Of a DNA stretch of 64,000 nucleotides, positions 30,651 through 64,000 are shown one piece after another. The notes under the pieces were generated by a model. The model ran no database searches, was not told where the DNA came from, and saw only the letters and a list, made by a program, of their open reading frames with translations. Numbering within the stretch: position 1 is the stretch's first letter; each line of letters starts with the position of its first letter. Source of the stretch: Pyropia yezoensis (lineage: Eukaryota; Rhodophyta; Bangiophyceae; Bangiales; Bangiaceae); assembly GCA_009829735.1 (NCBI GenBank), contig CM020620.1:62001-126000 (forward strand), in the 5' to 3' direction. The position numbers and the translations under genes are program-made.

Positions 30651-30685
<35 letters not shown>

Positions 30686-37769: not shown

Positions 37770-40015
37770 GACCAATAGCCGCCAAAGAGGCAAAGGGAAG
37801 GAGAGGCGGCAATGGGGGAAGAGGCGTGTTGAGAAGCGGGGGGGGGGGGGGGGTGCGACGGGGGGAAGAGCGCCCGTACCCGCGCTGCGTCGTTGGCGCG
37901 GTGATGCCCGACGCGGGCCGGCCGGGCCGTCGCTGGGTGGCGGCAAAGGGCAGACGATGGTGGTGGGGACAGGGGTGGGCGGGGGGGGGGGGGGGGGGGG
38001 GGAGGGGAGGGGAACGCCCTTTCACGAGGGCAGCGGGAGGAGTATGTGACGCCCCCCCCACCCCCCCCCCCCCCCCCCCCCAGCCGCACCGGCGGCGCCG
38101 CGGCACGGCAGCGGCGGCGCGTGCGCGCGTGTGGGCCCGATCTGTGGGCGCAGAGGGGGGGTGGACCGGGCTGGGTCGGGACCGCCGCGGCTGCCCCGCG
38201 GCCAGCACCCCCCCCCCCCCCCCACACAGCATACTGCGGGGGGGGGGGGGGGGGGCGTGTGCGCCAGGTAGAGCGGGCTCGCGAGCTGCGCGCCCGCTGC
38301 CGGCGCGCGCGGCCGGCCACTGGCGGGCGGCGTGGCACCCGTCTGCGACCACGTGACGGCCTTCTGGCGGCCGCGCGGGGAGGGGGGCGGCGTCGGCGGC
38401 GGCGGCTGGGGGGGGCGCTGATGGCAGCAGGCAGGCAGGATGGCCGCCGCGCCGGCCGGCCAGTCGGTCGGCTGGGCGGGAGGGGGTGTGCCACGGCGGG
38501 CCCTTGTGCCCCTGCGGGAGGCGTCCAACGGGGCACGGGCGTTGTTGGGGCCGAGGGCGGGTCGGGGCGGGGGGTCACCTCAAAAGAAAGGGAGCTGGGG
38601 CGTAGCCTATCTAGCTATGTAGGGGCAGGGGGGGAGGGGGCTGGTGTCAATGACAAAAGGTCGGCAAGGCGGTGCCGGTGGGTACTGCAGGGGGTTCGCT
38701 CTGGTGACCGTCCTCGTCGGTTGGACACGCAGCCAACCGGCGGTGGATGCACCGATAGCCTAAATACAGAGCCCCAACGAGGGGTCATCCCCCCTGGGAA
38801 GGAGCGGTGGGCGGGGAGGGGGGGGGGGATCGTGAACGCTCTTCATGGAGAGGACCCGCGGGAGCCCTTGCTGAGGGCCTGGGACTGATCTTTGCAGGCA
38901 CAGTTGATCTCGTCGGCCCCCACCGCGGACCAATGGCAATGCATCGATGTGTGCCCAATACAGTACTGTACTGTGTGTACAGTACGTGCAGAGCTGTACG
39001 TGGCCCCGAGTGGGGTACGTCGCGAGCCCAAACTCGTACGTTAAAAAAAGTAATAAAAAGCCCGGCAAACTAACAACCGCAAGCACCCCAGCACCCCCTG
39101 CCCCCGGCCTCCAGCACCCAGTCAGCGGGGAGGCGGCGTGGTCTCTCCCCACGGGGGGAGGAGGGACTGGTGTCTGGCAATGCGAATGGGAATGGGCGGC
39201 CGGCCGGCTTGGTCGTCGGCCGCCAGCGCGGTGCGCCCTCCAGCGCTACCTACAATACTGGGGAGGTTTTTTTGAACGCCACCGGCGCCGCTGCTACACC
39301 CCGACCCAACAGGGTGGCCAGTGGGTGCGGCCCGCCCACCCCTCTGCGTCCGCGTGCCCGTCGACCGCGAATAACCACCGCCGGCCGGCGGTGGGCGCCC
39401 ACCCCCCTCGCCAACAGCACGAGGGGAGGAGCTTCCTCGCTGGCAAGGCCGCCCGGCCGCCCGGTCGCCCACCGGCCTGGCCGCCCACGTGCCCGTCTGT
39501 CCGCCCGGCCGACCGGCCGCCCGGCCGCCCGGCCGCCTGTCCAGGTCAGGGAGCGCCGCGGCGGTGGTATGGAGCGCCGACAGAGGGCGGCGGTGGTATG
39601 GAGCCCCGACAGAGGGCGGCGGTGGTGGTGGCCGCTTTGGCATGCGCGCCGCACGACAACGCGTCGTGACAGGGGGGATGAGCGTGGGGCATAGGGTCGG
39701 GGGGATGGGTGCCCACCCCGACACGCTGGGGTCCTTTGGGAGAGACACATTCACCGTGTGAGCGGCCGTCGCGGGCAGCGTGCCGGGGCGCGGAATCGAG
39801 TGACTTGGCCGACAAAGGGACCGAAGGTGGGGCAACGAGAAAGCCCGTCACCCATGGTGTATAAAAAATAGAGATCGCGGGTGGGGTCGCTCTAGCGGGG
39901 GGGGCCCCCGCGCCCCCCTCCCTTGCCGTACGCGCCCCCCTCCCTTGCCGTACGCGCCCCCCTCCCTTGCCGTACGCGCCCCCCTCCATCGCCTTACGCG
40001 CCCCCCTCCATCGCC
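37770..40015. other. Intergenic region with long G/C runs, no gene seen
   Basis: Contains several homopolymers of 14 or more bases (for example 37839-37853, 37980-38001, 38060-38080). From 38156 it is inside copy 1 of the 12.1-kb repeat. Open frames are low-complexity. 39540-39625 holds two copies of a ~30-bp GGAGC(G/C)CCGACAGAGGGC unit. Confidence 0.5.
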
Positions 40016-40033
40016 TTACGCGCCCCCCCCCCC
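39910..40033. repeat. 22-bp minisatellite, copy 1
   Basis: About five tandem units of CCCCCTCC(C/A)T(T/C)GCC(G/T)TACGCG. The array runs into the stop codon of the SEC14-like gene, so it lies in that gene's 3' UTR if transcribed. Confidence 0.85.
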
Positions 40034-41143
40034 CTGCAGTGGGGGCACCTGGAACACACCCAGCGTCGCGGGGTCCACGCCCACCGGGATGGGCTCGTCG
40101 GCGTCCCCCCCCAGCCACCGTGGGAGGCGGGAGGCGCCAACCTCGCGGCGGAGCACCGGCACCACCCCCTCCCCCGTTGCGGGGACCCACCGGATCTCCC
40201 GGATGACCCGCGCACCGAGCAGCGGTACCAGGAGCTTGTACACAGCCAACACGGACAGGGGGTAGTTGACAAGGTACAACCGCCCGTGGCGCTCGGGGTA
40301 GTGGGTAAAGAAAAGCTTGATAACCTCCCGAAAGACGGGCAGGTCCACGTTGCGGGTGGCGGACCAGCCAGAAAAGTCCATGATGACGGTGAACCGCCGC
40401 GAGTGGCGGCCGCCCACAACGGGCGTGCGCCGGCGGGGCCGGCCAGCCACCACCGACGCCCCGCCGCCGGTAAAACTGGCGGCAGCAGCGGCGGTGGTGG
40501 CAGTGGCAGTGGACAGGGACGGGGGTGGCAGCGGGGCTCCCCCCGCCCCAGGCGCGCCTGCCCCCGCCGAGGGGTCACGATAAAAAATGCCCTCACACGA
40601 TGCAATGACCGCTTCAACGAGCGCCGCCCGCCGGAGGGTCTTGCGCTCAAACTGGGCGAGCGCCGCGTAGGCCAGCAGCCCTGCCCCCCCCGGGCGCGGG
40701 TCGTCACACGTGGGCCCGAGGAGGTAGGCCGGGAAGTTGGCGTCGGGCGCGTCCACCGCCGACGGGGGCACCGCCGAGACGCGGCGCTTGGCCCGCCAGC
40801 GGAGGGTGGCCTCAAGGGCGACCGCCGCGGCGGGGACGTCCCCGCCCGCGTCGCGGAGGAAGGAGAGGAGGAGGGTGTCCCGCTCCACGGCAGACGCCGC
40901 CACACACCGCAGCAGGTCGTCGGGGGGGGCGGGGGGGGACGCGGCCGCCGCCGCCGCGGCGGCGCGCTCCATGATGGGCCGCGCGGCGGTGGTGAGGGTG
41001 CTCAGCCCGGCGCGCTCGGGGGGGGACAGGTCCTCCACGTCGGGGTCGGTGGTGGTCCAGGGGGTGTCCAACGCCGGCGCGGTGGCGGGGACGTCGGGGT
41101 GGGAGCGGAAGAAGCTCATCCTTGGCAGGTAGGACGACGCCAT
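40016..41143 (-). CDS. SEC14/CRAL-TRIO lipid-transfer protein, copy 1
   Basis: SEC14-like proteins carry phosphoinositides or other lipids between membranes and present them to lipid kinases. The 375-aa frame from ATG 41143 (MASSYLPRMSFFRSHPD) is intact. The CRAL-TRIO N-terminal helices are visible in VERDTLLLSFLRDAGGDVPA and VALEATLRWR (about 88-120). The lipid-binding half follows from FTVIMDFSGWSATRNVDLPV (about 250) through IKLFFTHYPERHGRLYLVNY and PLSVLAVYKLLVPLLGARV. It then ends in a short Gly-rich tail. A Pro/Ala/Thr-rich insert (about 190-240) separates the halves. The frame is open 255 bases upstream, but that part is Pro/Arg-rich and is not included. It is divergent from the lyase gene. 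Confidence 0.82.
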   Translation of the reverse strand: MASSYLPRMSFFRSHPDVPATAPALDTPWTTTDPDVEDLSPPERAGLSTLTTAARPIMERAAAAAAAASPPAPPDDLLRCVAASAVERDTLLLSFLRDAGGDVPAAAVALEATLRWRAKRRVSAVPPSAVDAPDANFPAYLLGPTCDDPRPGGAGLLAYAALAQFERKTLRRAALVEAVIASCEGIFYRDPSAGAGAPGAGGAPLPPPSLSTATATTAAAAASFTGGGASVVAGRPRRRTPVVGGRHSRRFTVIMDFSGWSATRNVDLPVFREVIKLFFTHYPERHGRLYLVNYPLSVLAVYKLLVPLLGARVIREIRWVPATGEGVVPVLRREVGASRLPRWLGGDADEPIPVGVDPATLGVFQVPPLQGGGGA

Positions 41144-41866
41144 TGTGGGCGCACCGTGCGCGGCCGACGCTGCCCGCTGCCGCTGCTGTGCTGCCGGCAC
41201 GGCGGGGGCAGGGGGGAGAAAACGAGCACAGGAGGTAGGGGGGTCGGGCGGGCGAGCGGGCGGGCGTGCACCTTGGCGGCAGTGACGGGCGGAAGGGACG
41301 GCAGGAAGAGCAGACGGAGAACGTAGTCGGCGGGGAGGGTGAAAACGGAGGGGGAAGGCGGCAGCGTCAACAAGGGGGAGCGCCGTGCAGTGGCCCAACG
41401 GGCGGGGAAGGGGGGGCGCCCACGCGTTGTGTAGCCCGCCAAACGTGCGACTGAGCAGCGGCGGCAGGGACCCGCGTCGGGGGAGGCGAGGGGGCGCTCA
41501 GCGGATCAGCGCGCACCACCCGCCACGCCCTGCCCGTCGTCACTGCCACTGCCGTCGTACGAGGCCGTCACACAGGACAGGGGCGGCGAGGTCAGGCGGA
41601 AGGGGCGGGGGGTGGAGAGGAAGCCCTTGGGGACGGGGGGGGGGGGGTGCGGAGGCACCCCACGCGAGCGGCCCGCGCCGGGAGGCGGCGGCAGCCGCCG
41701 GCGGCCGGGCCGGCGGCCCAGCTGCAGCCGGCCCCCCACCCCACCCCCACAGCAAAGAACGGGCACAAACGCAACGGGCGGGGGGGGGACACACGCAGCG
41801 CTGCGGCAGCAGGAACCACGACGGCAGCGGCGGCGTCAACAGGCGGGCGTGGCGGTGGTGGTGGGG

Positions 41867-41906
<40 letters not shown>

Positions 41907-42682
41907 GTGGCGAGGCACCCACCCCACCCAGACGTCCTCCCCAGCCGACTGGCCAAGCGGGCTGGCTGCCTCGGACTCGGGGGACAGACCACCCCACGAG
42001 GTGTGCTGGGCGGGCGGGCCGCAGCGCGGGTGCCAGGAGGGGGATGAGCTGCGCGAGGGCTTGGCTATCGTCAGTCCATCGAGCAGCAGTCTCATTATTT
42101 TTCTGCCCGAACGAGTGGAGCACGGTGGGCACAGCCGGAAGACAGGGGCCACTTTATGGGTGCATGAGAAAGACTTGACATGGCCAGTACAGTCTTTCTC
42201 CATTGCTGTGACATCCTTTCTTGGGCACGGTGTCTAGTAACCAATGCAGGTCGACCGGCCTCTGCGGTGCGATCAACGCATGTGTCAGCATTCGATCGTT
42301 GTCACCGACCAATCAGAGGGCGGAATCAAGTTCCAATCCTTGGGCTTACGGTCGCCACAAAGGGTGCCCAACAACGGAGAAAGACTGTACCCAAGGGCTG
42401 CCTTCGCATTTATCAGAAGAACTACAACTTGTGTATTTTGCGATTGTCGCTGACCTCCAGCTGCAGCAGGGTCACTCGGCAGCTCAGAGCGGGGACGTTG
42501 TCGCCACCGTGGCCCACGCGAGCCTCCTCTGCGCCACCAACGCCAAGCGGTCACGGTACAGGCCTGGGAGTTGGAGGTAACGTTGAGGTGACCCTAGCTC
42601 CCCGAGCAGATATTCCCCCCTGTCTCTCTCCCCGTTCCCCTTCGTTCTCCCCTGCTCTTCTTCTCCCCTACCCCCTCTCGTC
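41144..42682. promoter_or_regulatory. Divergent region between SEC14-like and lyase genes
   Basis: 1.5 kb, copy 1. A GGC microsatellite lies at about 41867-41906. From about 42060 GC falls and the sequence contains CCAAT-type words (ACCAATGCAGG at 42240, ACCAATCAGAGG at 42309) about 370-440 bp upstream of the lyase ATG. The last ~70 bp before that ATG is a C/T-rich tract (CTGTCTCTCTCCCCG), a plausible initiator or leader. The copy 2 equivalent is 53738-55275. Confidence 0.4.
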
Positions 42683-43996
42683 ATGGCCCCACCTGGGGCA
42701 CCCGCCTTTGCTGGCCTGTGCCCCCTGGCGGCAGCGCCCGAACGGGCGCTCGGCGTCTGTGGCTCCCGGCGTCCGCGGCGTGCGGCGGCGGCCCCTGCCA
42801 TGACGCTGTCGAGCCCCGCGGCCGCTGGGTCGGGCGGCGCCCCCGACGCAGCCGCGGCGCCCGCCGCCCCTGCCGACGACGGGGCGGACCCGTTCCCGCT
42901 GGTCTCGGCGGGCACCCCCGCGGCGGCGGCGTTGTGGACCAACGCCATCCGGGACGTGCCCATGACGGAGCTGCACGACAATAGCGGCCTGTCCGAGGCG
43001 GAGATGGCCGCCGAGCGCGCCGCATGGGACGCTGCCAACGAGGGCGCCCGCCTCACCGGCACCGACCCGGTCGTGCCCACCGATGCGATGGCCTTCTTCC
43101 GCGCCCGCGCGGGCACCTGGGCGTCCTGGAGGGTCACCCATCACCTGGCGTTCCGGCGGTCGGAGACGGGCGAGTCGGCGATCAAGATGGTGGTGCTGCC
43201 GCCCACGGACGAGCGCATCGTGTCGCTGTGTGCGGACAATGACGTGGGCGCCGACGAGGAGGTGGTGGGAGGCTGCCACGTGACGTGGCAGGCGACCATG
43301 GCGTGGGACGCGGAAGGCGAAAACCACGCCGGCGAGACGGTCTTTGCCCTGGTGCCCGAGAAGGGGAGTAACGGCGCCCGTGGCCGGATGCTCCGTGACC
43401 GCGGCTATGCTGAGATTGTGCCTATTGCGGGGACCTACTTTATGGACGCCGCGGGGGGGCTGAACCTGATTACCCCCTATGACGGCGGGGAGGTGGTCGA
43501 ACGGTTTGTGTTTGACGGCCCCGACATGGTCCACCGCGCCTCAACGGTGTGCCGCTTTGGCGGCATGGGCACCGCCACCTTTTCCACCGAGCGCCGGATG
43601 GAGTGCACGCCGCCAGTGGCGGACGTTGCTTTTGACCACGACATGCTGGTGCAGGGCGGGCCGGGGCTGTCGCCCGATGACCGGAGTTTGGATGGGTCGG
43701 AGGGGGGCGCCGGCAGCGGCTCGTCGGTGGGCGGCAAGACCTTCCAGAGCCGCCTCGGTGCCGCTACCGCCGCGCGGGCGGCCGCCGCATCGGGCGGCAA
43801 GCCGAGTGCGCGGTCTGCGTTTGCCACGGGCTTTGGCAGCACCGAGGCGCGGCCCGCCGCGGGGGCTGCGGCCGCCGAGCCGGCAGGCGCTGCGGACCCG
43901 GTGGCGGCGGCGGCGGAAAAGGTGGGGATCGACCTCAGCAAGGTGCCGCCGAGCATGCGGGCAGATTTTATTGCGAGCTTGAACCGGGAGGAGTGA
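42683..43996 (+). CDS. cpcS: S-type phycobiliprotein lyase (CpcS/CpeS family), copy 1
   Basis: Attaches phycocyanobilin or phycoerythrobilin to a conserved Cys of phycobiliprotein subunits in the plastid. 437 aa. Residues 1-40 are Ala/Arg/Pro-rich without acidic residues except one Glu, fitting a transit peptide. The lipocalin-like lyase domain spans about 135-310 with AMAFFRARAGTWASWRVTHH (135-154) and LAFRRSETGES. It continues with VTWQATMAWDAEGENHAGET (200-219), GRMLRDRGYAEIVPIAGTYF and ERFVFDGPDMVHRASTVCRF then GGMGTATF. Cyanobacterial members are about 200 aa; here a linker (about 41-134) and a tail of about 127 residues are added, the tail ending VGIDLSKVPPSMRADFIASL. Bilin and target Cys cannot be told from sequence alone. 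No intron is needed. Confidence 0.92.
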   Translation: MAPPGAPAFAGLCPLAAAPERALGVCGSRRPRRAAAAPAMTLSSPAAAGSGGAPDAAAAPAAPADDGADPFPLVSAGTPAAAALWTNAIRDVPMTELHDNSGLSEAEMAAERAAWDAANEGARLTGTDPVVPTDAMAFFRARAGTWASWRVTHHLAFRRSETGESAIKMVVLPPTDERIVSLCADNDVGADEEVVGGCHVTWQATMAWDAEGENHAGETVFALVPEKGSNGARGRMLRDRGYAEIVPIAGTYFMDAAGGLNLITPYDGGEVVERFVFDGPDMVHRASTVCRFGGMGTATFSTERRMECTPPVADVAFDHDMLVQGGPGLSPDDRSLDGSEGGAGSGSSVGGKTFQSRLGAATAARAAAASGGKPSARSAFATGFGSTEARPAAGAAAAEPAGAADPVAAAAEKVGIDLSKVPPSMRADFIASLNREE

Positions 43997-44998
43997 GCGC
44001 CCGTGTTACGAAGAGGGATTCCATAGCGACTATGAGATAGACTGGGGGGTTGGGGGGCGGAGGCAATGTGCCTTGTCTTTTTTGTTTGTATAAGACCACA
44101 CCCTCCTAACAGCTCCATGTGACGTTGAACAAAGACGTGCATATGAACATGTGCAGCTTCTGATGACGTCGGGCGCCGTCGGGTGCGGGGGGAGCAGGAC
44201 ACCATGGTCCCTTTTTCTCGTTAGCCGCTCGCAAACACATTAGGAGTTCAGTCACGTTAGGCACGTTTTCGCCTGTGTGTGGATTTGATGATGTGCCAAC
44301 TGAACTGCACTGGCAAGAAACTGCAAGGAGTGCGGTTGAGTGCAGGAGCAAGACACACGTGCCGGCCGTGGAGCCCGACAACGTCAGACGCGCGCCGGCG
44401 ATCATGACATGACATTGTCAAAGGGTCCCCCATGCCATGCTGATGCCATGGGGCCCATGGGGGTCACAGCCGACCCCCACGTTGAATGACAACAGGAATC
44501 CTGACCGGACTGTTGCGATGACTAAAGAGGTCCTCTGGCGCTGGCGCCACCGCACAGTGGTGAACAGTACTCGGCAGTGGTTGATCTGGGGCCGCATCCT
44601 TGACACTGAGCCCAGCTTAGTAGTTTGGGGGGCACCTCGAGGTCTCTACGTATCGTTGCCAGACGGAGATCCATCGTGTTGTGGGGTGGAAGAGCACGCA
44701 CGCTTATCGTACAGCGCAGCAATGAACAGGTCACGGTCGGTGCGCTGGACCCCATTCAAAGGTTTTTTCGCCCAACGACTCACGGCTCGTTGCCGCCGCG
44801 CTGGTTTCCGATGCCCGGTAACACCCCCGCGCCTCCTCCCTCTGCTAGACCTGGGTACTCACCTACTCCCCCGGCGTCGGCCTCCGGGTGTGGACGTCGG
44901 TCGACCCGCCATTTCATTCCCAGAAAGAGCTGCCACCCTCACCGGAGGAGCTGATGTCGGGCGGTGCGTACCGGACTTCACCCTGTGTAGGCGGTGTC
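43997..44998. other. Intergenic between lyase and membrane-protein genes
   Basis: 1.0 kb of moderate GC, copy 1. A long plus-strand open frame (44437-45267) overlaps the start of the next gene in another frame and has no domain; it is probably chance. 44440-44475 contains nested CATGG palindromes (CCATGGGGCCCATGG at 44446). The copy 2 equivalent is 56590-57591. Confidence 0.5.
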
Positions 44999-46069
44999 AT
45001 GGCCCACCGGTCCAGGTACTCGTGGCGAGGAGGCAGCCTTGCTATGACATTATCCCTGGTGCTGCAGGCTGTCACCGCGGCAGGCGCCTCGGTGGCATCC
45101 ATCCGGCAGTCGGTGACACCTGTTTCCTGGGCAATCAGCACGGACAACCTCACCATCGCGGCGCCAGAGTGCTTTTTTGGACAAGCTGGGGACCTCATCA
45201 GCATGGTCACCGCGACAGAGGAGTGTGCACCACTGTGCATCGGCAATGCACAGTGCACTCACTTTGATTGGTCCGAGCCGAACCGAGGCCGGTGCCAGTT
45301 GAAGGGCGGCCCTGTCACGTTGGCAGATGCGCAGAGCTCCTCCACTCCAGGGGCCATTTGCGGCGTGGTGTTACCTGGCAGCCGGGTCCGTCGCCAAGAC
45401 GACGGTAGTGGCAGAGTCGGTCGCGCTTTTACTCTGGTTGGCAGCTTTGCTGGCGGAGCTGCCACTGCGGCGGTCGTCGCGGGATTGCTGGTCTGGTGGG
45501 CACGCCGCAAGCGGTCGGCAGCTCCTGCTGGCAAGCGTGACGCGGAGGGCGGCGGTGACGTGCCCGGAGCAGAAACAGCCCACCTACGAGCTGCCGACGA
45601 CCAGGGGGGCAACAAGTCGACGGCCGTGGCACCGCAGTTTGCGGCAGGGGTGCCTGCGCCACGCGAGCTCGCTACCACGTACGCGGCGGAGGGGTTTGCC
45701 GCGGGGGCGGCGACGGGGTCGGCAGTGTGGCCGACAGCGAGGGCGGCCGTTGGGGATGTGGAGCGAACGGGCGTGCCGGGAGCGCAATGGCCGGCTGGGG
45801 CGGCGGGCCGGCAGGGGTATCGGATGTCAAGCGCGGGCATCGTGACGGTGTGGGAGCCGCCGCATCCGCCTGCGGCTCCTCAAAGCACAGAGGCTATGGG
45901 CAGGGAGGCGGGGCCGCGGCAGCTCAGGGCGCTCGGTCCTCCGCCTTCGCCGCCACCAGAGCTGTGGGTGACGCAGGACGTGGTGGAGTGGAGAGCCCGC
46001 CAAAGCAGTCTTTCTACGCCTCCTGAGTCAAGCCCTCTGGGTCGTGATCGCTCACGCGGTCGCCAGTGA
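44999..46069 (+). CDS. Single-pass membrane protein with PAN/apple-like ectodomain, copy 1
   Basis: 356 aa from ATG 44999; an in-frame ATG at 44954 would add 15 residues. A hydrophobic leader (about 12-30) is followed by a small extracellular domain with six Cys (58, 76, 80, 86, 99, 121). Its ATEECAPLCIGNAQCTHFDW and GRCQLKGGPV resemble PAN/apple modules (taeeCaalCa...C..f.y......C.Lk), which bind protein or carbohydrate. A transmembrane helix (about 144-167, ending LLVWWARRKR) leads to an Ala/Gly/Pro-rich cytoplasmic tail of about 190 residues with no recognised domain. A receptor or adhesion role is inference. The last 15 residues differ from copy 2 because of one C in a C run (46028-46031), so the true C-terminus is uncertain. 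Confidence 0.68.
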   Translation: MAHRSRYSWRGGSLAMTLSLVLQAVTAAGASVASIRQSVTPVSWAISTDNLTIAAPECFFGQAGDLISMVTATEECAPLCIGNAQCTHFDWSEPNRGRCQLKGGPVTLADAQSSSTPGAICGVVLPGSRVRRQDDGSGRVGRAFTLVGSFAGGAATAAVVAGLLVWWARRKRSAAPAGKRDAEGGGDVPGAETAHLRAADDQGGNKSTAVAPQFAAGVPAPRELATTYAAEGFAAGAATGSAVWPTARAAVGDVERTGVPGAQWPAGAAGRQGYRMSSAGIVTVWEPPHPPAAPQSTEAMGREAGPRQLRALGPPPSPPPELWVTQDVVEWRARQSSLSTPPESSPLGRDRSRGRQ

Positions 46070-47100
46070 CGGGGGGGTCGCCAGTACCGACAAATGAATC
46101 TTTGACGACGAGCGGGTGAGAGAGCAGCCTTTTTTGACGATGGGCGGGCGAGAGGGAGGGACGGGCCGCTCGACGCAGGCGCCCGTTGCACTGCCTGCGT
46201 TGTGAGAAGGTGATCCGCCTCTGATAGGACTTTTGCGTGGCATGCTCAACCACTGTTAATGTCTACGGGGGGGGGCGGGGGTCGTCACCACCTTGCCAGT
46301 AAGGCGGTTTGCAACAAGCGCCGGCGCGGCGCTCCCCGAACGGCCTCGACACCATATGGCATGATGCTCGTACTCGACGCCGCGTGTCGCTTTCCTTTCG
46401 CAGCCGTAGCTTTGGTTGTCTATTTTTTTCTTTTTCTCTTCCAAAAGCCCAAAACGACGGGGAGGCGGTAAGCCATACAACGTGTGGCCCACGCCGGCCT
46501 GTGGGGTCCTGTTGGCAGCCAAGGCCGCCTCGGCGTCGCCTACCGCTGCAGTGGCAGTGGCAGCAGCAGCAGCAGCCAAAAGCCAATGCCCCCCCGTCGC
46601 CCGTGCTATGCCCGCGGTGGCCGAGGCGGCGCCAAAGACGGCGCGTCTCTGGGCAGCGGTGGCGGACGCGCTCGTCGGCGCGGCCCGCCCTCCTCTTTCC
46701 GCGTGGGAACCACGACCACCTTCCGCCCACACAACCGGGGGTGGGAGGGAGGGTGGATCATGGTTTGCACGAATAAAAACGATGCATTGTACTAGATAAT
46801 AGAATCAATTATGTACGTACCTATGTAGATACATAGATCAATATTAATGCAGATTGATCAGTTGGCGGTGTTCCGCTTTATATGTTTTACACTAAGGCCA
46901 CAAAGCGCTCCACGAAGTCGCTGCAGCGAGGTCATCCAAGTCCAGCAATAAACAACAGATCATTTAATAGTTAATTTATTTAACGTATTAATCTATAGAT
47001 TAATATATCTGGGATGTAAAAAGTCCATCTTTTTTCAACCATGGGCATGGGGTGTAACCGGGAAGGGGGGGGAGAGGGGTAGCCATGAACGCGTGACCGT
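46070..47100. other. Intergenic region with AT-rich island, copy 1
   Basis: 46070-46785 has short frames on both strands without a recognised family. About 46786-47040 is strongly AT-rich, in sharp contrast with the surrounding DNA, and contains the 20-bp perfect palindrome TATTAATCTATAGATTAATA (46986-47005), the inverted repeat CTATGTA-GA-TACATAG (46821-46836) and GTACGTAC. It abuts the 3' side of the retroelement remnant. The copy 2 equivalent is 58642-59695, with the palindrome at 59581-59600. Confidence 0.7.
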
Positions 47101-52507: not shown

Positions 52508-52631
52508 GCCGCCCCCCCTCCCTTGCCGTACGCGCCCCCCTCCCTTGCCGTACGCGCCCCCTCCCTTGCCGTACGCCCCCCTCCATCGCCTTACGCGCCC
52601 CCCTCCATCGCCTTACGCGCCCCCCCCCCCC
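52508..52631. repeat. 22-bp minisatellite, copy 2
   Basis: Same array as in copy 1, with small differences in unit length (one unit is two bases shorter). Confidence 0.82.
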
Positions 52632-53737
52632 TGCAGTGGGGGCACCTGGAACACACCCAGCGTCGCGGGGTCCACGCCCACCGGGATGGGCTCGTCGGCG
52701 TCCCCCCCCAGCCACCGTGGGAGGCGGGAGGCGCCAACCTCGCGGCGGAGCACCGGCACCACCCCCTCCCCCGTTGCGGGGACCCACCGGATCTCCCGGA
52801 TGACCCGCGCACCGAGCAGCGGTACCAGGAGCTTGTACACAGCCAACACGGACAGGGGGTAGTTGACAAGGTACAACCGCCCGTGGCGCTCGGGGTAGTG
52901 GGTAAAGAAAAGCTTGATAACCTCCCGAAGACGGGCAGGTCCACGTTGCGGGTGGCGGACCAGCCAGAAAAGTCCATGATGACGGTGAACCGCCGCGAGT
53001 GGCGGCCGCCCACAACGGGCGTGCGCCGGCGGGGCCGGCCAGCCACCACCGACGCCCCGCCGCCGGTAAAACTGGCGGCAGCAGCGGCGGTGGTGGCAGT
53101 GGCAGTGGACAGGGACGGGGGTGGCAGCGGGGCTCCCCCCGCCCCAGGCGCGCCTGCCCCCGCCGAGGGGTCACGATAAAAAATGCCCTCACACGATGCA
53201 ATGACCGCTTCAACGAGCGCCGCCCGCCGGAGGGTCTTGCGCTCAAACTGGGCGAGCGCCGCGTAGGCCAGCAGCCCTGCCCCCCCCGGGCGCGGGTCGT
53301 CACACGTGGGCCCGAGGAGGTAGGCCGGGAAGTTGGCGTCGGGCGCGTCCACCGCCGACGGGGGCACCGCCGAGACGCGGCGCTTGGCCCGCCAGCGGAG
53401 GGTGGCCTCAAGGGCGACCGCCGCGGCGGGGACGTCCCCGCCCGCGTCGCGGAGGAAGGAGAGGAGGAGGGTGTCCCGCTCCACGGCAGACGCCGCCACA
53501 CACCGCAGCAGGTCGTCGGGGGGGGCGGGGGGGGACGCGGCCGCCGCCGCGCGGCGGCGCGCTCCATGATGGGCCGCGCGGCGGTGGTGAGGGTGCTCAG
53601 CCCGGCGCGCTCGGGGGGGACAGGTCCTCCACGTCGGGGTCGGTGGTGGTCCAGGGGGTGTCCAACGCCGGCGCGGTGGCGGGGACGTCGGGGTGGGAGC
53701 GGAAGAAGCTCATCCTTGGCAGGTAGGACGACGCCAT
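52613..53737 (-). CDS. SEC14/CRAL-TRIO lipid-transfer protein, copy 2 (frame disturbed)
   Basis: Second copy of the 40016-41143 gene. Relative to copy 1 it lacks one A in the AAA near 52928, has a small loss in a GCC run near 53550 and one fewer G near 53617, so no single frame spans the protein. Copy 1 is open throughout and reads as a normal CRAL-TRIO protein, so copy 2 most likely carries consensus errors at a contig end and not real mutations. Confidence 0.8.
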
Positions 53738-54459
53738 TGTGGGCGCACCGTGCGCGGCCGACGCTGCCCGCTGCCGCTGCTGTGCTGCCGGCACGGCGGG
53801 GGCAGGGGGGAGAAAACGAGCACAGGAGGTAGGGGGGTCGGGCGGGCGAGCGGGCGGGCGTGCACCTTGGCGGCAGTGACGGGCGGAAGGGACGGCAGGA
53901 AGAGCAGACGGAGAACGTAGTCGGCGGGGAGGGTGAAAACGGAGGGGGAAGGCGGCAGCGTCAACAAGGGGGAGCGCCGTGCAGTGGCCCAACGGGCGGG
54001 GAAGGGGGGGCGCCCACGCGTTGTGTAGCCCGCCAAACGTGCGACTGAGCAGCGGCGGCAGGGACCCGCGTCGGGGGAGGCGAGGGGGCGCTCAGCGGAT
54101 CAGCGCGCACCACCCGCCACGCCCTGCCCGTCGTCACTGCCACTGCCGTCGTACGAGGCCGTCACACAGGACAGGGGCGGCGAGGTCAGGCGGAAGGGGC
54201 GGGGGGTGGAGAGGAAGCCCTTGGGGACGGGGGGGGGGGGGTGCGGAGGCACCCCACGCGAGCGCCCGCGCCGGGAGGCGGGCGGCAGCCGCCGGCGGCC
54301 GGGCCGGCGGCCCAGCTGCAGCCGGCCCCCCACCCCACCCCCACAGCAAAGAACGGGCACAAACGCAACGGGCGGGGGGGGACACACGCAGCGCTGCGGC
54401 AGCAGGAACCACGACGGCAGCGGCGGCGTCAACAGGCGGGCGTGGCGGTGGTGGTGGGG

Positions 54460-54499
<40 letters not shown>

Positions 54500-55275
54500 G
54501 TGGCGAGGCACCCACCCCACCCAGACGTCCTCCCCAGCCGACTGGCCAAGCGGGCTGGCTGCCTCGGACTCGGGGGACAGACCACCCCACGAGGTGTGCT
54601 GGGCGGGCGGGCCGCAGCGCGGGTGCCAGGAGGGGGATGAGCTGCGCGAGGGCTTGGCTATCGTCAGTCCATCGAGCAGCAGTCTCATTATTTTTCTGCC
54701 CGAACGAGTGGAGCACGGTGGGCACAGCCGGAAGACAGGGGCCACTTTATGGGTGCATGAGAAAGACTTGACATGGCCAGTACAGTCTTTCTCCATTGCT
54801 GTGACATCCTTTCTTGGGCACGGTGTCTAGTAACCAATGCAGGTCGACCGGCCTCTGCGGTGCGATCAACGCATGTGTCAGCATTCGATCGTTGTCACCG
54901 ACCAATCAGAGGGCGGAATCAAGTTCCAATCCTTGGGCTTACGGTCGCCACAAAGGGTGCCCAACAACGGAGAAAGACTGTACCCAAGGGCTGCCTTCGC
55001 ATTTATCAGAAGAACTACAACTTGTGTATTTTGCGATTGTCGCTGACCTCCAGCTGCAGCAGGGTCACTCGGCAGCTCAGAGCGGGGACGTTGTCGCCAC
55101 CGTGGCCCACGCGAGCCTCCTCTGCGCCACCAACGCCAAGCGGTCACGGTACAGGCCTGGGAGTTGGAGGTAACGTTGAGGTGACCCTAGCTCCCCGAGC
55201 AGATATTCCCCCCTGTCTCTCTCCCCGTTCCCCTTCGTTCTCCCCTGCTCTTCTTCTCCCCTACCCCCTCTCGTC

Positions 55276-56589
55276 ATGGCCCCACCTGGGGCACCCGCCT
55301 TTGCTGGCCTGTGCCCCCTGGCGGCAGCGCCCGAACGGGCGCTCGGCGTCTGTGGCTCCCGGCGTCCGCGGCGTGCGGCGGCGGCCCCTGCCATGACGCT
55401 GTCGAGCCCCGCGGCCGCTGGGTCGGGCGGCGCCCCCGACGCAGCCGCGGCGCCCGCCGCCCCTGCCGACGACGGGGCGGACCCGTTCCCGCTGGTCTCG
55501 GCGGGCACCCCCGCGGCGGCGGCGTTGTGGACCAACGCCATCCGGGACGTGCCCATGACGGAGCTGCACGACAATAGCGGCCTGTCCGAGGCGGAGATGG
55601 CCGCCGAGCGCGCCGCATGGGACGCTGCCAACGAGGGCGCCCGCCTCACCGGCACCGACCCGGTCGTGCCCACCGATGCGATGGCCTTCTTCCGCGCCCG
55701 CGCGGGCACCTGGGCGTCCTGGAGGGTCACCCATCACCTGGCGTTCCGGCGGTCGGAGACGGGCGAGTCGGCGATCAAGATGGTGGTGCTGCCGCCCACG
55801 GACGAGCGCATCGTGTCGCTGTGTGCGGACAATGACGTGGGCGCCGACGAGGAGGTGGTGGGAGGCTGCCACGTGACGTGGCAGGCGACCATGGCGTGGG
55901 ACGCGGAAGGCGAAAACCACGCCGGCGAGACGGTCTTTGCCCTGGTGCCCGAGAAGGGGAGTAACGGCGCCCGTGGCCGGATGCTCCGTGACCGCGGCTA
56001 TGCTGAGATTGTGCCTATTGCGGGGACCTACTTTATGGACGCCGCGGGGGGGCTGAACCTGATTACCCCCTATGACGGCGGGGAGGTGGTCGAACGGTTT
56101 GTGTTTGACGGCCCCGACATGGTCCACCGCGCCTCAACGGTGTGCCGCTTTGGCGGCATGGGCACCGCCACCTTTTCCACCGAGCGCCGGATGGAGTGCA
56201 CGCCGCCAGTGGCGGACGTTGCTTTTGACCACGACATGCTGGTGCAGGGCGGGCCGGGGCTGTCGCCCGATGACCGGAGTTTGGATGGGTCGGAGGGGGG
56301 CGCCGGCAGCGGCTCGTCGGTGGGCGGCAAGACCTTCCAGAGCCGCCTCGGTGCCGCTACCGCCGCGCGGGCGGCCGCCGCATCGGGCGGCAAGCCGAGT
56401 GCGCGGTCTGCGTTTGCCACGGGCTTTGGCAGCACCGAGGCGCGGCCCGCCGCGGGGGCTGCGGCCGCCGAGCCGGCAGGCGCTGCGGACCCGGTGGCGG
56501 CGGCGGCGGAAAAGGTGGGGATCGACCTCAGCAAGGTGCCGCCGAGCATGCGGGCAGATTTTATTGCGAGCTTGAACCGGGAGGAGTGA
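55276..56589 (+). CDS. cpcS: S-type phycobiliprotein lyase (CpcS/CpeS family), copy 2
   Basis: The predicted protein is identical over all 437 residues to the copy at 42683-43996; see that entry for domains. Identity across 1.3 kb of GC-rich coding sequence argues for one locus represented twice and not an old gene duplication. Confidence 0.92.
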   Translation: MAPPGAPAFAGLCPLAAAPERALGVCGSRRPRRAAAAPAMTLSSPAAAGSGGAPDAAAAPAAPADDGADPFPLVSAGTPAAAALWTNAIRDVPMTELHDNSGLSEAEMAAERAAWDAANEGARLTGTDPVVPTDAMAFFRARAGTWASWRVTHHLAFRRSETGESAIKMVVLPPTDERIVSLCADNDVGADEEVVGGCHVTWQATMAWDAEGENHAGETVFALVPEKGSNGARGRMLRDRGYAEIVPIAGTYFMDAAGGLNLITPYDGGEVVERFVFDGPDMVHRASTVCRFGGMGTATFSTERRMECTPPVADVAFDHDMLVQGGPGLSPDDRSLDGSEGGAGSGSSVGGKTFQSRLGAATAARAAAASGGKPSARSAFATGFGSTEARPAAGAAAAEPAGAADPVAAAAEKVGIDLSKVPPSMRADFIASLNREE

Positions 56590-57591
56590 GCGCCCGTGTT
56601 ACGAAGAGGGATTCCATAGCGACTATGAGATAGACTGGGGGGTTGGGGGGCGGAGGCAATGTGCCTTGTCTTTTTTGTTTGTATAAGACCACACCCTCCT
56701 AACAGCTCCATGTGACGTTGAACAAAGACGTGCATATGAACATGTGCAGCTTCTGATGACGTCGGGCGCCGTCGGGTGCGGGGGGAGCAGGACACCATGG
56801 TCCCTTTTTCTCGTTAGCCGCTCGCAAACACATTAGGAGTTCAGTCACGTTAGGCACGTTTTCGCCTGTGTGTGGATTTGATGATGTGCCAACTGAACTG
56901 CACTGGCAAGAAACTGCAAGGAGTGCGGTTGAGTGCAGGAGCAAGACACACGTGCCGGCCGTGGAGCCCGACAACGTCAGACGCGCGCCGGCGATCATGA
57001 CATGACATTGTCAAAGGGTCCCCCATGCCATGCTGATGCCATGGGGCCCATGGGGGTCACAGCCGACCCCCACGTTGAATGACAACAGGAATCCTGACCG
57101 GACTGTTGCGATGACTAAAGAGGTCCTCTGGCGCTGGCGCCACCGCACAGTGGTGAACAGTACTCGGCAGTGGTTGATCTGGGGCCGCATCCTTGACACT
57201 GAGCCCAGCTTAGTAGTTTGGGGGGCACCTCGAGGTCTCTACGTATCGTTGCCAGACGGAGATCCATCGTGTTGTGGGGTGGAAGAGCACGCACGCTTAT
57301 CGTACAGCGCAGCAATGAACAGGTCACGGTCGGTGCGCTGGACCCCATTCAAAGGTTTTTTCGCCCAACGACTCACGGCTCGTTGCCGCCGCGCTGGTTT
57401 CCGATGCCCGGTAACACCCCCGCGCCTCCTCCCTCTGCTAGACCTGGGTACTCACCTACTCCCCCGGCGTCGGCCTCCGGGTGTGGACGTCGGTCGACCC
57501 GCCATTTCATTCCCAGAAAGAGCTGCCACCCTCACCGGAGGAGCTGATGTCGGGCGGTGCGTACCGGACTTCACCCTGTGTAGGCGGTGTC

Positions 57592-58641
57592 ATGGCCCAC
57601 CGGTCCAGGTACTCGTGGCGAGGAGGCAGCCTTGCTATGACATTATCCCTGGTGCTGCAGGCTGTCACCGCGGCAGGCGCCTCGGTGGCATCCATCCGGC
57701 AGTCGGTGACACCTGTTTCCTGGGCAATCAGCACGGACAACCTCACCATCGCGGCGCCAGAGTGCTTTTTTGGACAAGCTGGGGACCTCATCAGCATGGT
57801 CACCGCGACAGAGGAGTGTGCACCACTGTGCATCGGCAATGCACAGTGCACTCACTTTGATTGGTCCGAGCCGAACCGAGGCCGGTGCCAGTTGAAGGGC
57901 GGCCCTGTCACGTTGGCAGATGCGCAGAGCTCCTCCACTCCAGGGGCCATTTGCGGCGTGGTGTTACCTGGCAGCCGGGTCCGTCGCCAAGACGACGGTA
58001 GTGGCAGAGTCGGTCGCGCTTTTACTCTGGTTGGCAGCTTTGCTGGCGGAGCTGCCACTGCGGCGGTCGTCGCGGGATTGCTGGTCTGGTGGGCACGCCG
58101 CAAGCGGTCGGCAGCTCCTGCTGGCAAGCGTGACGCGGAGGGCGGCGGTGACGTGCCCGGAGCAGAAACAGCCCACCTACGAGCTGCCGACGACCAGGGG
58201 GGCAACAAGTCGACGGCCGTGGCACCGCAGTTTGCGGCAGGGGTGCCTGCGCCACGCGAGCTCGCTACCACGTACGCGGCGGAGGGGTTTGCCGCGGGGG
58301 CGGCGACGGGGTCGGCAGTGTGGCCGACAGCGAGGGCGGCCGTTGGGGATGTGGAGCGAACGGGCGTGCCGGGAGCGCAATGGCCGGCTGGGGCGGCGGG
58401 CCGGCAGGGGTATCGGATGTCAAGCGCGGGCATCGTGACGGTGTGGGAGCCGCCGCATCCGCCTGCGGCTCCTCAAAGCACAGAGGCTATGGGCAGGGAG
58501 GCGGGGCCGCGGCAGCTCAGGGCGCTCGGTCCTCCGCCTTCGCCGCCACCAGAGCTGTGGGTGACGCAGGACGTGGTGGAGTGGAGAGCCCGCCAAAGCA
58601 GTCTTTCTACGCCTCCTGAGTCAAGCCCCTCTGGGTCGTGA
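57592..58641 (+). CDS. PAN/apple-like membrane protein, copy 2
   Basis: 349 aa from ATG 57592. Identical to copy 1 until the last residues, where one extra C in a C run (58626-58629) gives the ending PESSPSGS in place of PESSPLGRDRSRGRQ. Which end is right cannot be decided from the window. Domains are described at 44999-46069. Confidence 0.68.
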   Translation: MAHRSRYSWRGGSLAMTLSLVLQAVTAAGASVASIRQSVTPVSWAISTDNLTIAAPECFFGQAGDLISMVTATEECAPLCIGNAQCTHFDWSEPNRGRCQLKGGPVTLADAQSSSTPGAICGVVLPGSRVRRQDDGSGRVGRAFTLVGSFAGGAATAAVVAGLLVWWARRKRSAAPAGKRDAEGGGDVPGAETAHLRAADDQGGNKSTAVAPQFAAGVPAPRELATTYAAEGFAAGAATGSAVWPTARAAVGDVERTGVPGAQWPAGAAGRQGYRMSSAGIVTVWEPPHPPAAPQSTEAMGREAGPRQLRALGPPPSPPPELWVTQDVVEWRARQSSLSTPPESSPSGS

Positions 58642-59695
58642 TCGCTCACGCGGTCGCCAGTGACGGGGGGGTCGCCAGTACCGACAAATGAATCTTTGAC
58701 GACGAGCGGGTGAGAGAGCAGCCTTTTTTGACGATGGGCGGGCGAGAGGGAGGGACGGGCCGCTCGACGCAGGCGCCCGTTGCACTGCCTGCGTTGTGAG
58801 AAGGTGATCCGCCTCTGATAGGACTTTTGCGTGGCATGCTCAACCACTGTTAATGTCTACGGGGGGGGGCGGGGGTCGTCACCACCTTGCCAGTAAGGCG
58901 GTTGCAACAAGCGCCGGCGCGGCGCTCCCCGAACGGCCTCGACACCATATGGCATGATGCTCGTACTCGACGCCGCGTGTCGCTTTCCTTTCGCAGCCGT
59001 AGCTTTGGTTGTCTATTTTTTTCTTTTTCTCTTCCAAAAGCCCAAAACGACGGGGAGGCGGTAAGCCATACAACGTGTGGCCCACGCCGGCCTGTGGGGT
59101 CCTGTTGGCAGCCAAGGCCGCCTCGGCGTCGCCTACCGCTGCAGTGGCAGTGGCAGCAGCAGCAGCAGCCAAAAGCCAATGCCCCCCCGTCGCCCGTGCT
59201 ATGCCCGCGGTGGCCGAGGCGGCGCCAAAGACGGCGCGTCTCTGGGCAGCGGTGGCGGACGCGCTCGTCGGCGCGGGCCGCCCTCCTCTTTCCGCGTGGG
59301 AACCACGACCACCTTCCGCCCACACAACCGGGGGTGGGAGGGAGGGTGGATCATGGTTTGCACGAATAAAAACGATGCATTGTACTAGATAATAGAATCA
59401 ATTATGTACGTACCTATGTAGATACATAGATCAATATTAATGCAGATTGATCAGTTGGCGGTGTTCCGCTTTATATGTTTTACACTAAAGGCCACAAAGC
59501 GCTCCACGAAGTCGCTGCAGCGAGGTCAATCCAAGTCCAGCAATAAACAACAGATCATTTAATAGTTAATTTATTTAACGTATTAATCTATAGATTAATA
59601 TATCTGGGATGTAAAAAGTCCATCTTTTTTCAACCATGGGCATGGGGTGTAACCGGGAAGGGGGGGGAGAGGGGTAGCCATGAACGCGTGACCGT

Positions 59696-62190
59696 TTATT
59701 GAGACATGGGAGAACGCTCTAACAAGCACGTAAGCAGGACAAAAGACGAGAACGAGTACAAGAGGATGGGCACGCCCGCCTGCGGCGTTGCCCGTCCCAA
59801 GACATAGGGCGTTAGCCCTCTATCCCCTGGTGCGAGAGCCGCACGTCCCGACCGCGCGGCTTGCCGTTCGAGCCCGTCCGCATGAGCGGCCCTAGCAGCT
59901 GAAAGAGGGACTGCGTTCGGTAGCGAGCCTGCGGCACCGACAGCGTAGTCGACACTGCCGTCCCGCAAAAGGAGCGCAGCGCACCGAACCTGACCCACCG
60001 TCGGTGCTTCGCGGCGTACCGCAGCAGCGTCAGCGCCATCGTCTCGATCTTGGCGACCCGCTGCGGCTGCAGGCGGAAGATGCCCATCTCCGTGTCGACG
60101 ACGTGCCCCAACAGGGGCAGCGCCGTCGTCCCGTCGCGGACGCCTTTGCGCTGGTGCATCCTCAGCCCCAGGACTCCCAGCAGCTCCGCTGCAGCTTGCC
60201 ACCCCTTGGCCGCGTCCGCTCTCGTAGCCGGGCTGCTCGGTTTGGCGACCGGCGGCGGGCCCCCAAAGTCGTCGACGTACGCCGTCGCCACGAAGCCCAT
60301 CTCCCGCAGCTTGGCCACCACCGGCCGGCAGACCTTCGTCCATGTAAATGGGGCGATGGCGAGCCCGAACGGCAGGGAAAAGGGCGCGAAGACGCGCCCC
60401 TGCAACGTGAAGCACAGCAGGGGTTGGTCCTCCGCCCGGATCCGGAGGTGGTGGAAGGCGTCCGCAATGTCCCACGAGATCATCTGGTCGTCCGGGCGCA
60501 GGCCGGGAGCCAACTCCGCCAGCGTCTCGTACTTGAAGCGCCGCCTCTCCATGTAGGCGTTGGGGTGACGGCAGTCCACCACCAGCCGCGGCTTGCCCGC
60601 GCTATGGGTGACAAAAGCCCCGACGATGCACTGCGCCTGCTCCACCTCGTCGGCGGAGAGCTCCCGCAGGTAGCCGGCCGCTAGCCAGCGAGCGAGCTCC
60701 TCCTTGGCCCACTCATTGTCCTCGGAGTTGAGTTGGTACCCTCGACTCCGGTACCGCGGCGGCCGCTGCCGCCACGGAATCTGCACCCCGCGGAGGATGG
60801 TCTCTACCACCCACCGCGAAGCCCCCAGGGACCGCCATGCCTTGATCGCCCGCCGGGTCGCCGTGTAAGGACGCAACGACGGGTGCGTGGGGTCCGCCCG
60901 GCCGACGGTTGGGGAATGTCCGCCGGCCGAGGCCTCTTGCCCCTTGGCGCCTGGGGGTGAAGCCACCCCCCCCGGGGCCAGACGAAAAAACTTAGGCGGT
61001 TCTCCCGCCGCCCCCGCTGCCTCCACCTCGGCCGGCGCCGCCGGAAGCCGATTGGCCGGCGCCGCCACCTCTTCCGCCAGTTTTCTGGCCGCCTCCACCG
61101 CCGCCGCCGCCGCCAGCGCCAGGCGTTCCTTTCTGGCCGTCCTTCTTGGCGACCTTGTTGGAGTTTTGCCCACCGCCGCCGCCGCCTCCGCCGCCGCCGC
61201 CCCCGCCACCTCCGCCGCCGCCGCCGCCGCCCGACCCTGGGCTGACCCTGACGCCACGGCGTCGGGCGCGCGCCTCTGCTGCCGCCTTGATGTTGATCCG
61301 CACCTCGTCGCGGGCGACCGTGGAGAGCCAGCGGCGACCCTTGGGCCCTCTGAACGTGTTCCGGGGGACAGCCTCGGTCGCCTTGTATAGCTCGGCGCCA
61401 ACAGGGTCCCGCTGCCGGTACTCGAGGTAGTCGTACTGGGCGGTCGCGAGGTGGAACAGCTGCCGGGCGGCCGTGGCCGCGCCGGCGAGGCGGTCGGCAA
61501 GGCCGGCCGCACTGTAGTCGTTGTGGTGGTGGTAGAGCTGGACCGCGGCGTTGGAGAGCTCTTGGGCCCAGGCGGCCACCTGGTAGGAGAAGGCCGCCTC
61601 GTGGTAGCCCGCGGAGCCGTGCTTAAAATGGGCGTGGAAGCGCGCGACGTCCGGCTCGAACGGGACGGGGATGCCGTCGCGGCGCTGGACGGCTGGAGGA
61701 ATGACGTACGCCCGAATGATATCGTGCGCGTCGGGCAGGTCGGGGTCGTCAAACCCGTCGGGGTGCAGGACGACCTTGGTGGATCACGCCGCGTGGGCGG
61801 CGACGCTGCGGTCGCCTCGCCCGTCGCCCATGCCCCCAAGGATGGAGTCCCCCGCGTCGCTTGACCCGACGGTCGAGTAGATGTCGTCGGGGGGGTCGTC
61901 GTCGTCGTCGAGATCCCCGCCGCTTTCGCGGGCGAGTCGTCCCGGAGCTTTGGGGGCGGCCGCCTGGTGCGACTGCTGCGCCGCAGCGGCGCCAGCGCCG
62001 CGCACCAGCGTAAACAGCGCCTGCAGCTGCGTCTTGACCTCCTCCAGGTCGGTCTTGGACGCAGCCACGTTGACCGTTGCCGTCGATGCCGGAGAAGGCG
62101 GCGCGGGCGGGATCGTCTTCCCCGAGCCCGTGCTGCCTGCGGCCGCTGCGGCGCCGCCCCCCACCGAGGGGGCATCGTCTCTCATGCCCG
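59696..62190 (-). mobile_element. Broken reverse-transcriptase retroelement (DIRS-like), copy 2
   Basis: Same fossil element as at 47101-49600, with the gag-like part on the right and the reverse transcriptase on the left (about 59812-60990). It lacks recognisable RNase H, recombinase and terminal repeats, so it is incomplete, with few breaks. Being inside the duplicated block it is not an independent insertion. Confidence 0.78.
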
Positions 62191-63781
62191 CGCCTAGCAG
62201 GTGCGCAGTCCGCGTCAAGCCGAGGCCGCCGAGGCAGCCTGGGAGTCCCTCTTGCCGCTGATGTCTGCGGCAAGAAGGAGGACGTTGCCGGCCACCCGCC
62301 GGCAGTAGGGTGGGCGGCCCGGGGTACTTGTGGCCGCCGCCGGTGTCATGGACGGCGGCCCGCCCGTCGCCCCTCCTCCTCCCGTCTCCGCTGCCGCCGC
62401 CAGGCACGCCCCCGCGTGCGCGCGCGCGCCGTCACGCGCCACCGCCGCCGCCGCCGCCGCCGCTGCGCGGTGCCCCCTCGCGGCCGCGTGGCCAAGCGGC
62501 CGCCAGACCGCGGGCGCGCCGGAAGAAAGAAACGGCGCAGGCCCAACGGCAGGTTGTGGCGGTGGGGGGGGGGGGGGGGGGGCGGCTGGGGAGGAGAGGG
62601 CAGGAGCAGGCGGTACGACCCGCCCGTCCCCCGCCGCTCCCGCCACGACAAGTCGAAACGGTGGCGGGGGAGAGGGTAAGGGGGTGGTACCACGCCAGCA
62701 GCTTACAGACGCCGCCGGCCGGGCCGCCCACGGGCTGTCCAGTTAACAGCCTTGCCCCAAGGGAGGGAAAGTGGGCGGATCTCTGCCCTAGGAGGTGGGG
62801 GACCGGATCGACGCCCGTGCTGCTGGTCGTTCAAGGCCAGCGTCGCCACTCTGCCCGCCCGACCACGTCGCTCGCGGTGGGTGCGTGCGGCGTTCAGCTT
62901 GCTCCAGGGCTGCCTGGCACGACAGCGGTGAGATCGTCAGCGTCGGTATGAGTTGTGGGGCCGCTATTCGTGTGGAATATGTGTTACCCAATATAAAGGA
63001 TATGGGACCGACCGGCGCCCGGAAGGCAAAGAGGAAGCGATTACCGTAGAGGCAAAGAAGACAGACCTTTAGCTCCTGGACGTTCGATGGGGAGCAAGCC
63101 GGCCGAAGGCAGCGGCGAGTCCCCACGTCGCAGATAAGGGCGAAAACAATATGCCGGTCGAGCGACCGAGCGGAGGCCGGACGGCCGATCGCTACGAGCA
63201 TAGCAATCAATATAAAAGATCCCTCCAAGGCAAGGACAGATAAACAATACAAAACAAAAGTAGTCCCCCAAAGGGCGAGCCACAAGCGGACCCATGCCAA
63301 CAAGGCTGGGGCCACCAGTCAGGGGGGCTACAAGCCAGTAAATACCGGAATTCGGTACAAGGGGCGGATATGCTACATACCCCCGTTGCGAGCTTCGAGC
63401 CGTCCCGGCGAGGTCCGATCCGGTGCGGCCGGGCGGCCGGATGTGGCTACCTGCCAGCGTGCGGTGGAGGGGTCGCGTCCGCGTCGTTGTTCTGGAAGCA
63501 CCGGGCCGTATGGCCGTCGGGCGCTGACTTGCATGCCTGGCCGGACGCCTCGTTGGCGGGGCACTATAAGTGTCTGGCACGTCGGTGCCGCGGAGCACTT
63601 GGCCGTCGGTCGGCACGTCTTTTGACGGGTGCGCCGGCTCGACCGTCGGTCGTGGCCGGTGGATGGCCAGTTGGCTCGTTACGCCCCGCCGAGGGGCACT
63701 ACGCGGCTGCCGTTGGCTGGCGGCCGAGATCGGCCTGTGCGGCTAAGGGGCCAGTGCGGCCGTGCGGCAGGCGTGGCGGCA
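62191..63781. other. No gene recognised; unique sequence begins at 62862
   Basis: 62191-62861 repeats 49601-50264. From 62862 the sequence is not seen elsewhere in the window and GC is lower to about 63380. Two TATA-like words (AATATAAAGG at 62991, AATATAAAAG at 63209) and a short hydrophobic minus-strand frame (62788-63315) are present. It may be part of a repeat or mobile element; no domain supports this. Confidence 0.45.
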
Positions 63782-64000
63782 CGGCAAGGGCGGCCACGCG
63801 GCGCGAGCGGTCAGGGGCGTCGGCCGGGCGGCAAGGGCGGCCACGCGGCGCGGTCGACCAAGGGCGTCGGCCGGGCGGCAAGGGCGGCCACGCGGCACGA
63901 GCGACCAAGGGCGTCGGCGCGAGGGCGGCCAAGTGCGGCCGTCGAACGGCAAGGGCGGCCAAGCGGCGCGGTCGGCCAAGGGGCACGAGTGGTCAAGGGC
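63782..64000. repeat. 47-bp GC-rich minisatellite
   Basis: CGGCAAGGGCGGCCACGCGG starts at 63782, 63829 and 63876 (47-bp spacing), with a more diverged copy at 63947 after a longer interval. It runs to the window end, so its length is unknown. Related GGCCxxGCGGC words occur from about 63720. Confidence 0.88.

What the first reader, a model, noticed from the sequence alone, without database searches (positions are those of the whole stretch)
38156..62861. 12.1-kb block duplicated exactly up to both edges of a 500-N gap: probable unmerged contig overlap
Copy 1 stops at the first N and copy 2 starts at the last N. A real tandem duplication would meet both gap edges only by coincidence, while two contigs with overlapping ends would always do so. 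Differences are mostly in homopolymer length. If right, about 12 kb and three protein genes are counted twice, and the gap is not real.
Basis: partly seen in the sequence, partly recalled or inferred. Interest (0 to 1): 0.75.

Follow-up and report, generated by a model that had tools for sequence, protein, structure and literature searches.

The report
Falsely doubled contig overlap
A 12-kb stretch of what looks like a red-algal chromosome appears twice around a gap, most likely because two overlapping assembly pieces were never merged, so its genes are counted twice; this is a known kind of assembly error.

Summary
38156/38157-50264 and 50765-62861 are the same 12.1 kb, 99.64% identical, ending on the bases that flank the window's only gap, exactly 500 N. 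Inside are 34 indels, 31 of them single-letter, and at most one isolated substitution. A 4.25-kb middle is identical.

New evidence is a polarity of frame errors. On the left, copy 1 keeps a CRAL-TRIO frame that copy 2 breaks; on the right, copy 2 keeps gag-like and reverse-transcriptase frames that copy 1 breaks: 10 of 10 sites by hand-picked landmarks. A codon-usage scan of the same ten agrees at 5, disagrees at 1 and is undecided at 4. Each copy is bad towards its own contig end, as for one locus read twice.

This matches the published "homotype false duplication" at contig boundaries (passages). The source looks like a Bangiales red alga; the Neoporphyra haitanensis assembly (70.06% GC, double haploid, FALCON, Hi-C) fits but was not tested. 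No reads were available, so copy number is inferred. Low interest: a known artefact.

The parts
38156..50264 (+). Copy 1: right end of the left-hand contig (contig A)
   Evidence: 99.64% identical to 50765-62861; ends at the last base before the gap
50265..50764 (.). 500-N gap, the only N run in the window
   Evidence: one published 3D-DNA/Juicebox study states 500 Ns between contigs
50765..62861 (+). Copy 2: left end of the right-hand contig (contig B)
40016..41398 (-). CRAL-TRIO (Sec14-like) ORF, open in copy 1; the equivalent stretch in copy 2 (about 52613-53992, by alignment) holds three indels and is broken
   Evidence: Pfam CRAL_TRIO E 2.2e-13 in copy 1; no Pfam hit in the two copy-2 ORFs scanned, the third copy-2 frame was not scanned; frames
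42683..43996 (+). CpeS/CpcS-type phycobiliprotein lyase gene, copy 1
   Evidence: Pfam CpeS E 2.7e-48; PDB 3bdr Ycf58 E 1.4e-34
55276..56589 (+). The same lyase gene in copy 2, letter-for-letter identical
44888..46069 (+). PAN-domain ORF, copy 1 (copy 2: 57481-58641; the 3' ends differ by one indel)
   Evidence: Pfam PAN_1 E 1.5e-4 and 1.4e-4, 22 bits against a cut-off of 21.4
47217..49600 (-). Retroelement fragment (gag-like stretch and reverse transcriptase), copy 1, frames interrupted
   Evidence: RVT_1 E 1.1e-7; frames
59812..62195 (-). The same retroelement fragment in copy 2, with one frame through each landmark set
   Evidence: RVT_1 E 2.7e-7, so the RT domain hit itself does not separate the copies; frames
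41781..46031 (+). Identical core of the block (copy 2: 54374-58624)

Best explanation
One 12.1-kb locus is present in two overlapping contigs whose ends were never merged. The assembler carried the same stretch (perhaps about one corrected long read) to the end of contig A and to the start of contig B. Scaffolding then placed the contigs side by side with a fixed 500-N spacer. The real chromosome would run from left of 38156 through one copy into 62862 with no gap. Shown: the geometry, near-absence of substitutions, indel type and polarity. Inferred: the single-copy state, the shared-read origin and the scaffolder.
For: Both ends meet the gap exactly. 34 internal indels but at most one isolated substitution in 12.1 kb, whereas real paralogues or alleles normally carry at least as many substitutions as indels (general knowledge). 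Polarity in the raw alignment: where copy 2 is the shorter one, 14 of 20 sites are in the left half; where copy 1 is shorter, 10 of 14 are in the right half (Fisher p 0.035, Mann-Whitney p 0.024). Polarity by reading frame: the 3 indels between the CRAL-TRIO landmarks keep frame in copy 1 only, and the 7 between the gag-like and RT landmarks keep frame in copy 2 only. By hand, perfect separation of 3 and 7 has chance 1/120 if sites were independent. Difference-free 4,252-b middle: 1 of 100,000 uniform and 14 of 100,000 run-length-matched draws do as well. Five G or C runs of 16-22 bases lie at 37838-38255, around the start of contig B, a possible cause of the break. Published precedent, with one example blamed on a FALCON bug (passages).
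Against: No reads, depth or Hi-C data were available. A very young tandem duplication that the assembler could not cross would give similar edges. Landmarks were picked by eye after reading the translations, and the gag-like frame has no Pfam support. In the codon-usage scan of 34 sites, 15 discriminate between the copies: the 5 with positive coding score on both sides agree with the polarity (1 left, 4 right), but of the 10 without it 8 nominally point the other way and 2 agree. On the ten landmark sites that scan agrees at 5, disagrees at 1 (47293) and is undecided at 4.
Confidence: 0.94

Rival explanations
1. A true, very recent tandem duplication of 12.1 kb, unresolved by the assembler, which broke at the repeat boundaries; the missing junction lies in the gap.
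For: Also predicts two near-identical copies facing a gap.
Against: Does not by itself predict that each copy carries frame errors towards its own contig end or a difference-free middle. The edges share almost no microhomology: one letter (G) between left-flank end and block end, none between block start and right-flank start (letters printed). BLAST of the 5-kb left flank against the right flank finds 5 short matches, best 58 b at 79%; 2-kb pieces around both edges give 30 short matches, best 40 b at 87.5% (E 8e-8), none spanning an edge-to-edge repeat.
Confidence: 0.04
2. Two alleles of a heterozygous locus placed in tandem (heterotype false duplication).
For: Also an assembly artefact that ends at a gap.
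Against: Alleles should differ by substitutions; at most one isolated substitution in 12.1 kb. The assignable differences break frames and are polar. If the source is the N. haitanensis assembly, the plant was a double haploid.
Confidence: 0.02

Closest known systems
[quoted passage not shown] 5b legend; passages seen)
   Same: Same locus at two contig ends, in tandem with a gap between after scaffolding; consensus quality differs between copies
   Different: No difference seen; read length, read depth and k-mer counts not testable here
Wrongly separated overlapping contig ends, i.e. negative gaps (Pan_tro_2.1.4 versus 3.0, PMC5714192; passages seen)
   Same: Contig ends that overlap but are written as a gap
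   Different: Another species and an earlier assembly
Heterotype false duplication / heterozygous overlap (PMC7203741, PMC9516828; passages seen)
   Same: Duplicated sequence of neighbouring contigs kept in a scaffold
   Different: Those carry haplotype variants; here there are almost no substitutions

Membership tests
Homotype false duplication at a contig boundary | Duplicate copies lie in tandem on either side of a scaffolding gap and reach its edges | tested here: met
Homotype false duplication at a contig boundary | No haplotype variants; differences look like sequencing error | tested here: met
   34 internal indels, at most 1 isolated substitution; 32 of 35 indels (edge one included) single-letter
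Homotype false duplication at a contig boundary | Consensus quality differs between copies | tested here: met
   Indirect: frame landmarks put 10 of 10 sites on the expected side; the codon scan agrees at 5, disagrees at 1, undecided at 4 of these ten. Not measured on reads.
Homotype false duplication at a contig boundary | Length about one corrected read | tested here: inconclusive
   12.1 kb is plausible for PacBio continuous long reads (general knowledge); the read lengths are unknown
Homotype false duplication at a contig boundary | Low read depth and k-mer copy-number anomaly | not testable with these tools
   no reads; no genome held
Heterotype false duplication | Haplotype-specific variants between copies | tested here: not met
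   at most 1 isolated substitution in 12.1 kb
CpeS/CpcS phycobiliprotein lyase (gene inside the block) | Full-length CpeS domain | tested here: met
   PF09367 positions 1-170 of 170, E 2.7e-48

The most novel reading that the evidence does not exclude
A genuine, very young tandem duplication doubling a phycobiliprotein lyase and a Sec14-like gene in a Bangiales-like alga, with the assembler stopping at the repeat edges and low-quality contig ends making the polar errors.
Probability: 0.04. Interest if true: 0.3.

Novelty: not a real feature. Interest (0 to 1): 0.1.

Why it matters
It matters for data quality only. About 12 kb, a phycobiliprotein lyase, a Sec14-like gene and a PAN-domain ORF would be counted twice, one copy of the Sec14-like gene would look like a pseudogene, and a gap would be reported where none exists. 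Copy-number claims near contig ends of this assembly need checking. The polarity of frame errors is a cheap sign of such overlaps when only the assembled sequence is at hand.

Tried and rejected
So other gaps of the same assembly could not be checked for the same fault.

A scan of the bacterial and archaeal genome collection for the lyase matched 318 stretches by pattern but confirmed no relative by tblastn, and a megablast of 42600-46100 against plasmids found nothing. Neither informs on copy number.

A codon-usage frame scan around the 34 internal indels, trained on five Pfam-supported ORFs outside the block, was mostly uninformative: 19 sites do not discriminate and 10 of the other 15 lack coding signal on one or both sides. 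The landmark count is therefore given with this weaker, partly contrary companion.

A search for the putative tandem junction, block end next to block start with five free bases between, found no match in the window; the junction would lie in the gap, so this says little. An Rfam scan at gathering thresholds gave no match. A paper search for N. haitanensis and phycobiliprotein lyase listed one review, not opened. A search for 500-N gaps in 3D-DNA scaffolding listed 7 papers; two were opened by passage: one states 500 Ns between contigs, in the other the match was nanoseconds. The N. haitanensis paper does not contain '500', so its gap size is not stated there.

Full report
What was checked. 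The window holds one N run, 50265-50764, exactly 500 N. Self-BLASTN pairs 38157-50264 with 50765-62861 on the same strand at 99.637%. The last base before the gap is the last base of copy 1 and the first base after it is the first base of copy 2. The left edge falls in a G run (38155-38161), so it is known to within 1-2 bases.

Kind of difference. The global alignment has 35 indels (one at the very edge) and 3 mismatch columns. Two mismatch columns are one C-run/G shift beside an indel, and the third can be read as a shift between adjacent G and C runs, so clear substitutions number none or one. 32 of 35 indels are single-letter; 30 of 32 sit in runs of 2 or more and 26 of 32 in runs of 3 or more, against 49.7% and 21.5% of bases. 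This is what noisy long reads leave in a consensus (general knowledge), not what alleles or aged paralogues look like.

Where the differences lie. There is a 4.25-kb stretch with no difference (41781-46031; equality confirmed). Of random placements of the 34 internal indels, 1 of 100,000 uniform draws and 14 of 100,000 draws matched for run length leave as long a gap. Copy 2 is the shorter one at 20 sites, 14 of them in the left half; copy 1 at 14 sites, 10 of them in the right half (Fisher p 0.035; Mann-Whitney p 0.024).

Which copy is wrong. The CRAL-TRIO gene on the minus strand in the left part has an open frame of 460 aa in copy 1 with a Pfam hit of 2.2e-13; two overlapping copy-2 ORFs that were scanned give no hit, and the remaining copy-2 frame was not scanned. 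All four landmarks of that protein share one frame in copy 1 but fall in two frames in copy 2, and three indels lie in the ORF. In the right part the gag-like landmarks (6 of 6) and the RT landmarks (5 of 5) each share one frame in copy 2. In copy 1 they scatter over three frames, and one gag-like landmark is lost. Seven indels lie between these landmarks. So 3 of 3 sites on the left blame copy 2 and 7 of 7 on the right blame copy 1. Caveats: the landmark peptides were chosen by eye from the translations; the gag-like frame has no Pfam support; the RVT_1 hit is present in both copies (1.1e-7 and 2.7e-7) and does not separate them; one RT site (47293) lies near the end of the open frame.

Codon-usage control. 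A scan over the 34 internal indels discriminated at 15. The 5 with coding signal on both sides agree with the polarity. Of the 10 without it, 8 nominally disagree and 2 agree; I treat these as noise because at least one side scores zero or less in the copy that would keep frame. On the ten landmark sites the scan agrees at 5, disagrees at 1 (47293) and is undecided at 4, where it preferred an antisense frame on one side.

Meaning. Contig A loses quality towards its right end and contig B towards its left end, and they agree best where both are far from an end. One locus read twice explains this directly. A real duplication would need an extra reason, such as poor polishing of the ends of an unresolved repeat.

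Edges. Only one letter is shared between left-flank end and block end and none between block start and right-flank start; BLAST between flanks finds only short matches, best 58 b at 79%. Five G or C runs of 16-22 bases lie within 37838-38255, around the start of contig B. That they caused the break is inference.

Where it comes from. The block encodes a CpeS-type phycobiliprotein lyase (E 2.7e-48; Ycf58 structure 3bdr E 1.4e-34). The window also has matches to the glucan water dikinase phosphohistidine domain and NopRA1, and a 1,581-aa ankyrin ORF, with GC 70.1% without N. That suggests a GC-rich eukaryote with phycobilins, hence probably a Bangiales red alga (inference). Neoporphyra haitanensis is reported at 70.06% GC, a double haploid, assembled with FALCON, corrected with arrow and pilon, clustered by LACHESIS and ordered in Juicebox (passages of PMC8752119). 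Another paper gives Pyropia yezoensis 65%, P. haitanensis 67.9%, Bangia 64% and Porphyra umbilicalis 66% (passages of PMC7423979). The fit is suggestive; identity was not tested. One 3D-DNA/Juicebox study states 500 Ns between contigs (one passage of PMC10320752).

Known artefact. [quoted passage not shown] PMC9516828 (Ko et al., author recalled) lists gaps between duplicated pairs on one scaffold as a main sign of false duplication (passages). I see nothing here that departs from that.

Limits. No reads, depth, Hi-C or other assembly of the species could be consulted, so the single-copy state is inferred, not measured.

Noticed in passing
22702-27447 (-): 1,581-aa ORF with many ankyrin repeats (24 stretches to PF00023); its DNA at about 24536-26964 is an array of period 99 with self-matches about 82-89% alike.
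   Followed up: partly
37838-38255: Five G or C homopolymers of 16-22 bases within 420 bases, around the start of the overlap; 27 such runs of 12 or more in the whole window, duplicated ones included.
   Followed up: partly
29907-34832 (-): 1,641-aa ORF, locally above 81% GC, with a NopRA1 domain hit. The only tRNA call, tRNA-Gln at 32614-32699, lies inside it and is probably spurious; Rfam gives no match at gathering thresholds.
   Followed up: no
63740-63971: GC-rich short tandem-like repeats at the right edge of the window, about 81% alike.
   Followed up: no
47217-49600 and 59812-62195 (-): Retroelement fragment with gag-like stretch and RT; a stop inside the gag-like frame is shared by both copies, so the element may be decayed.
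   Followed up: no
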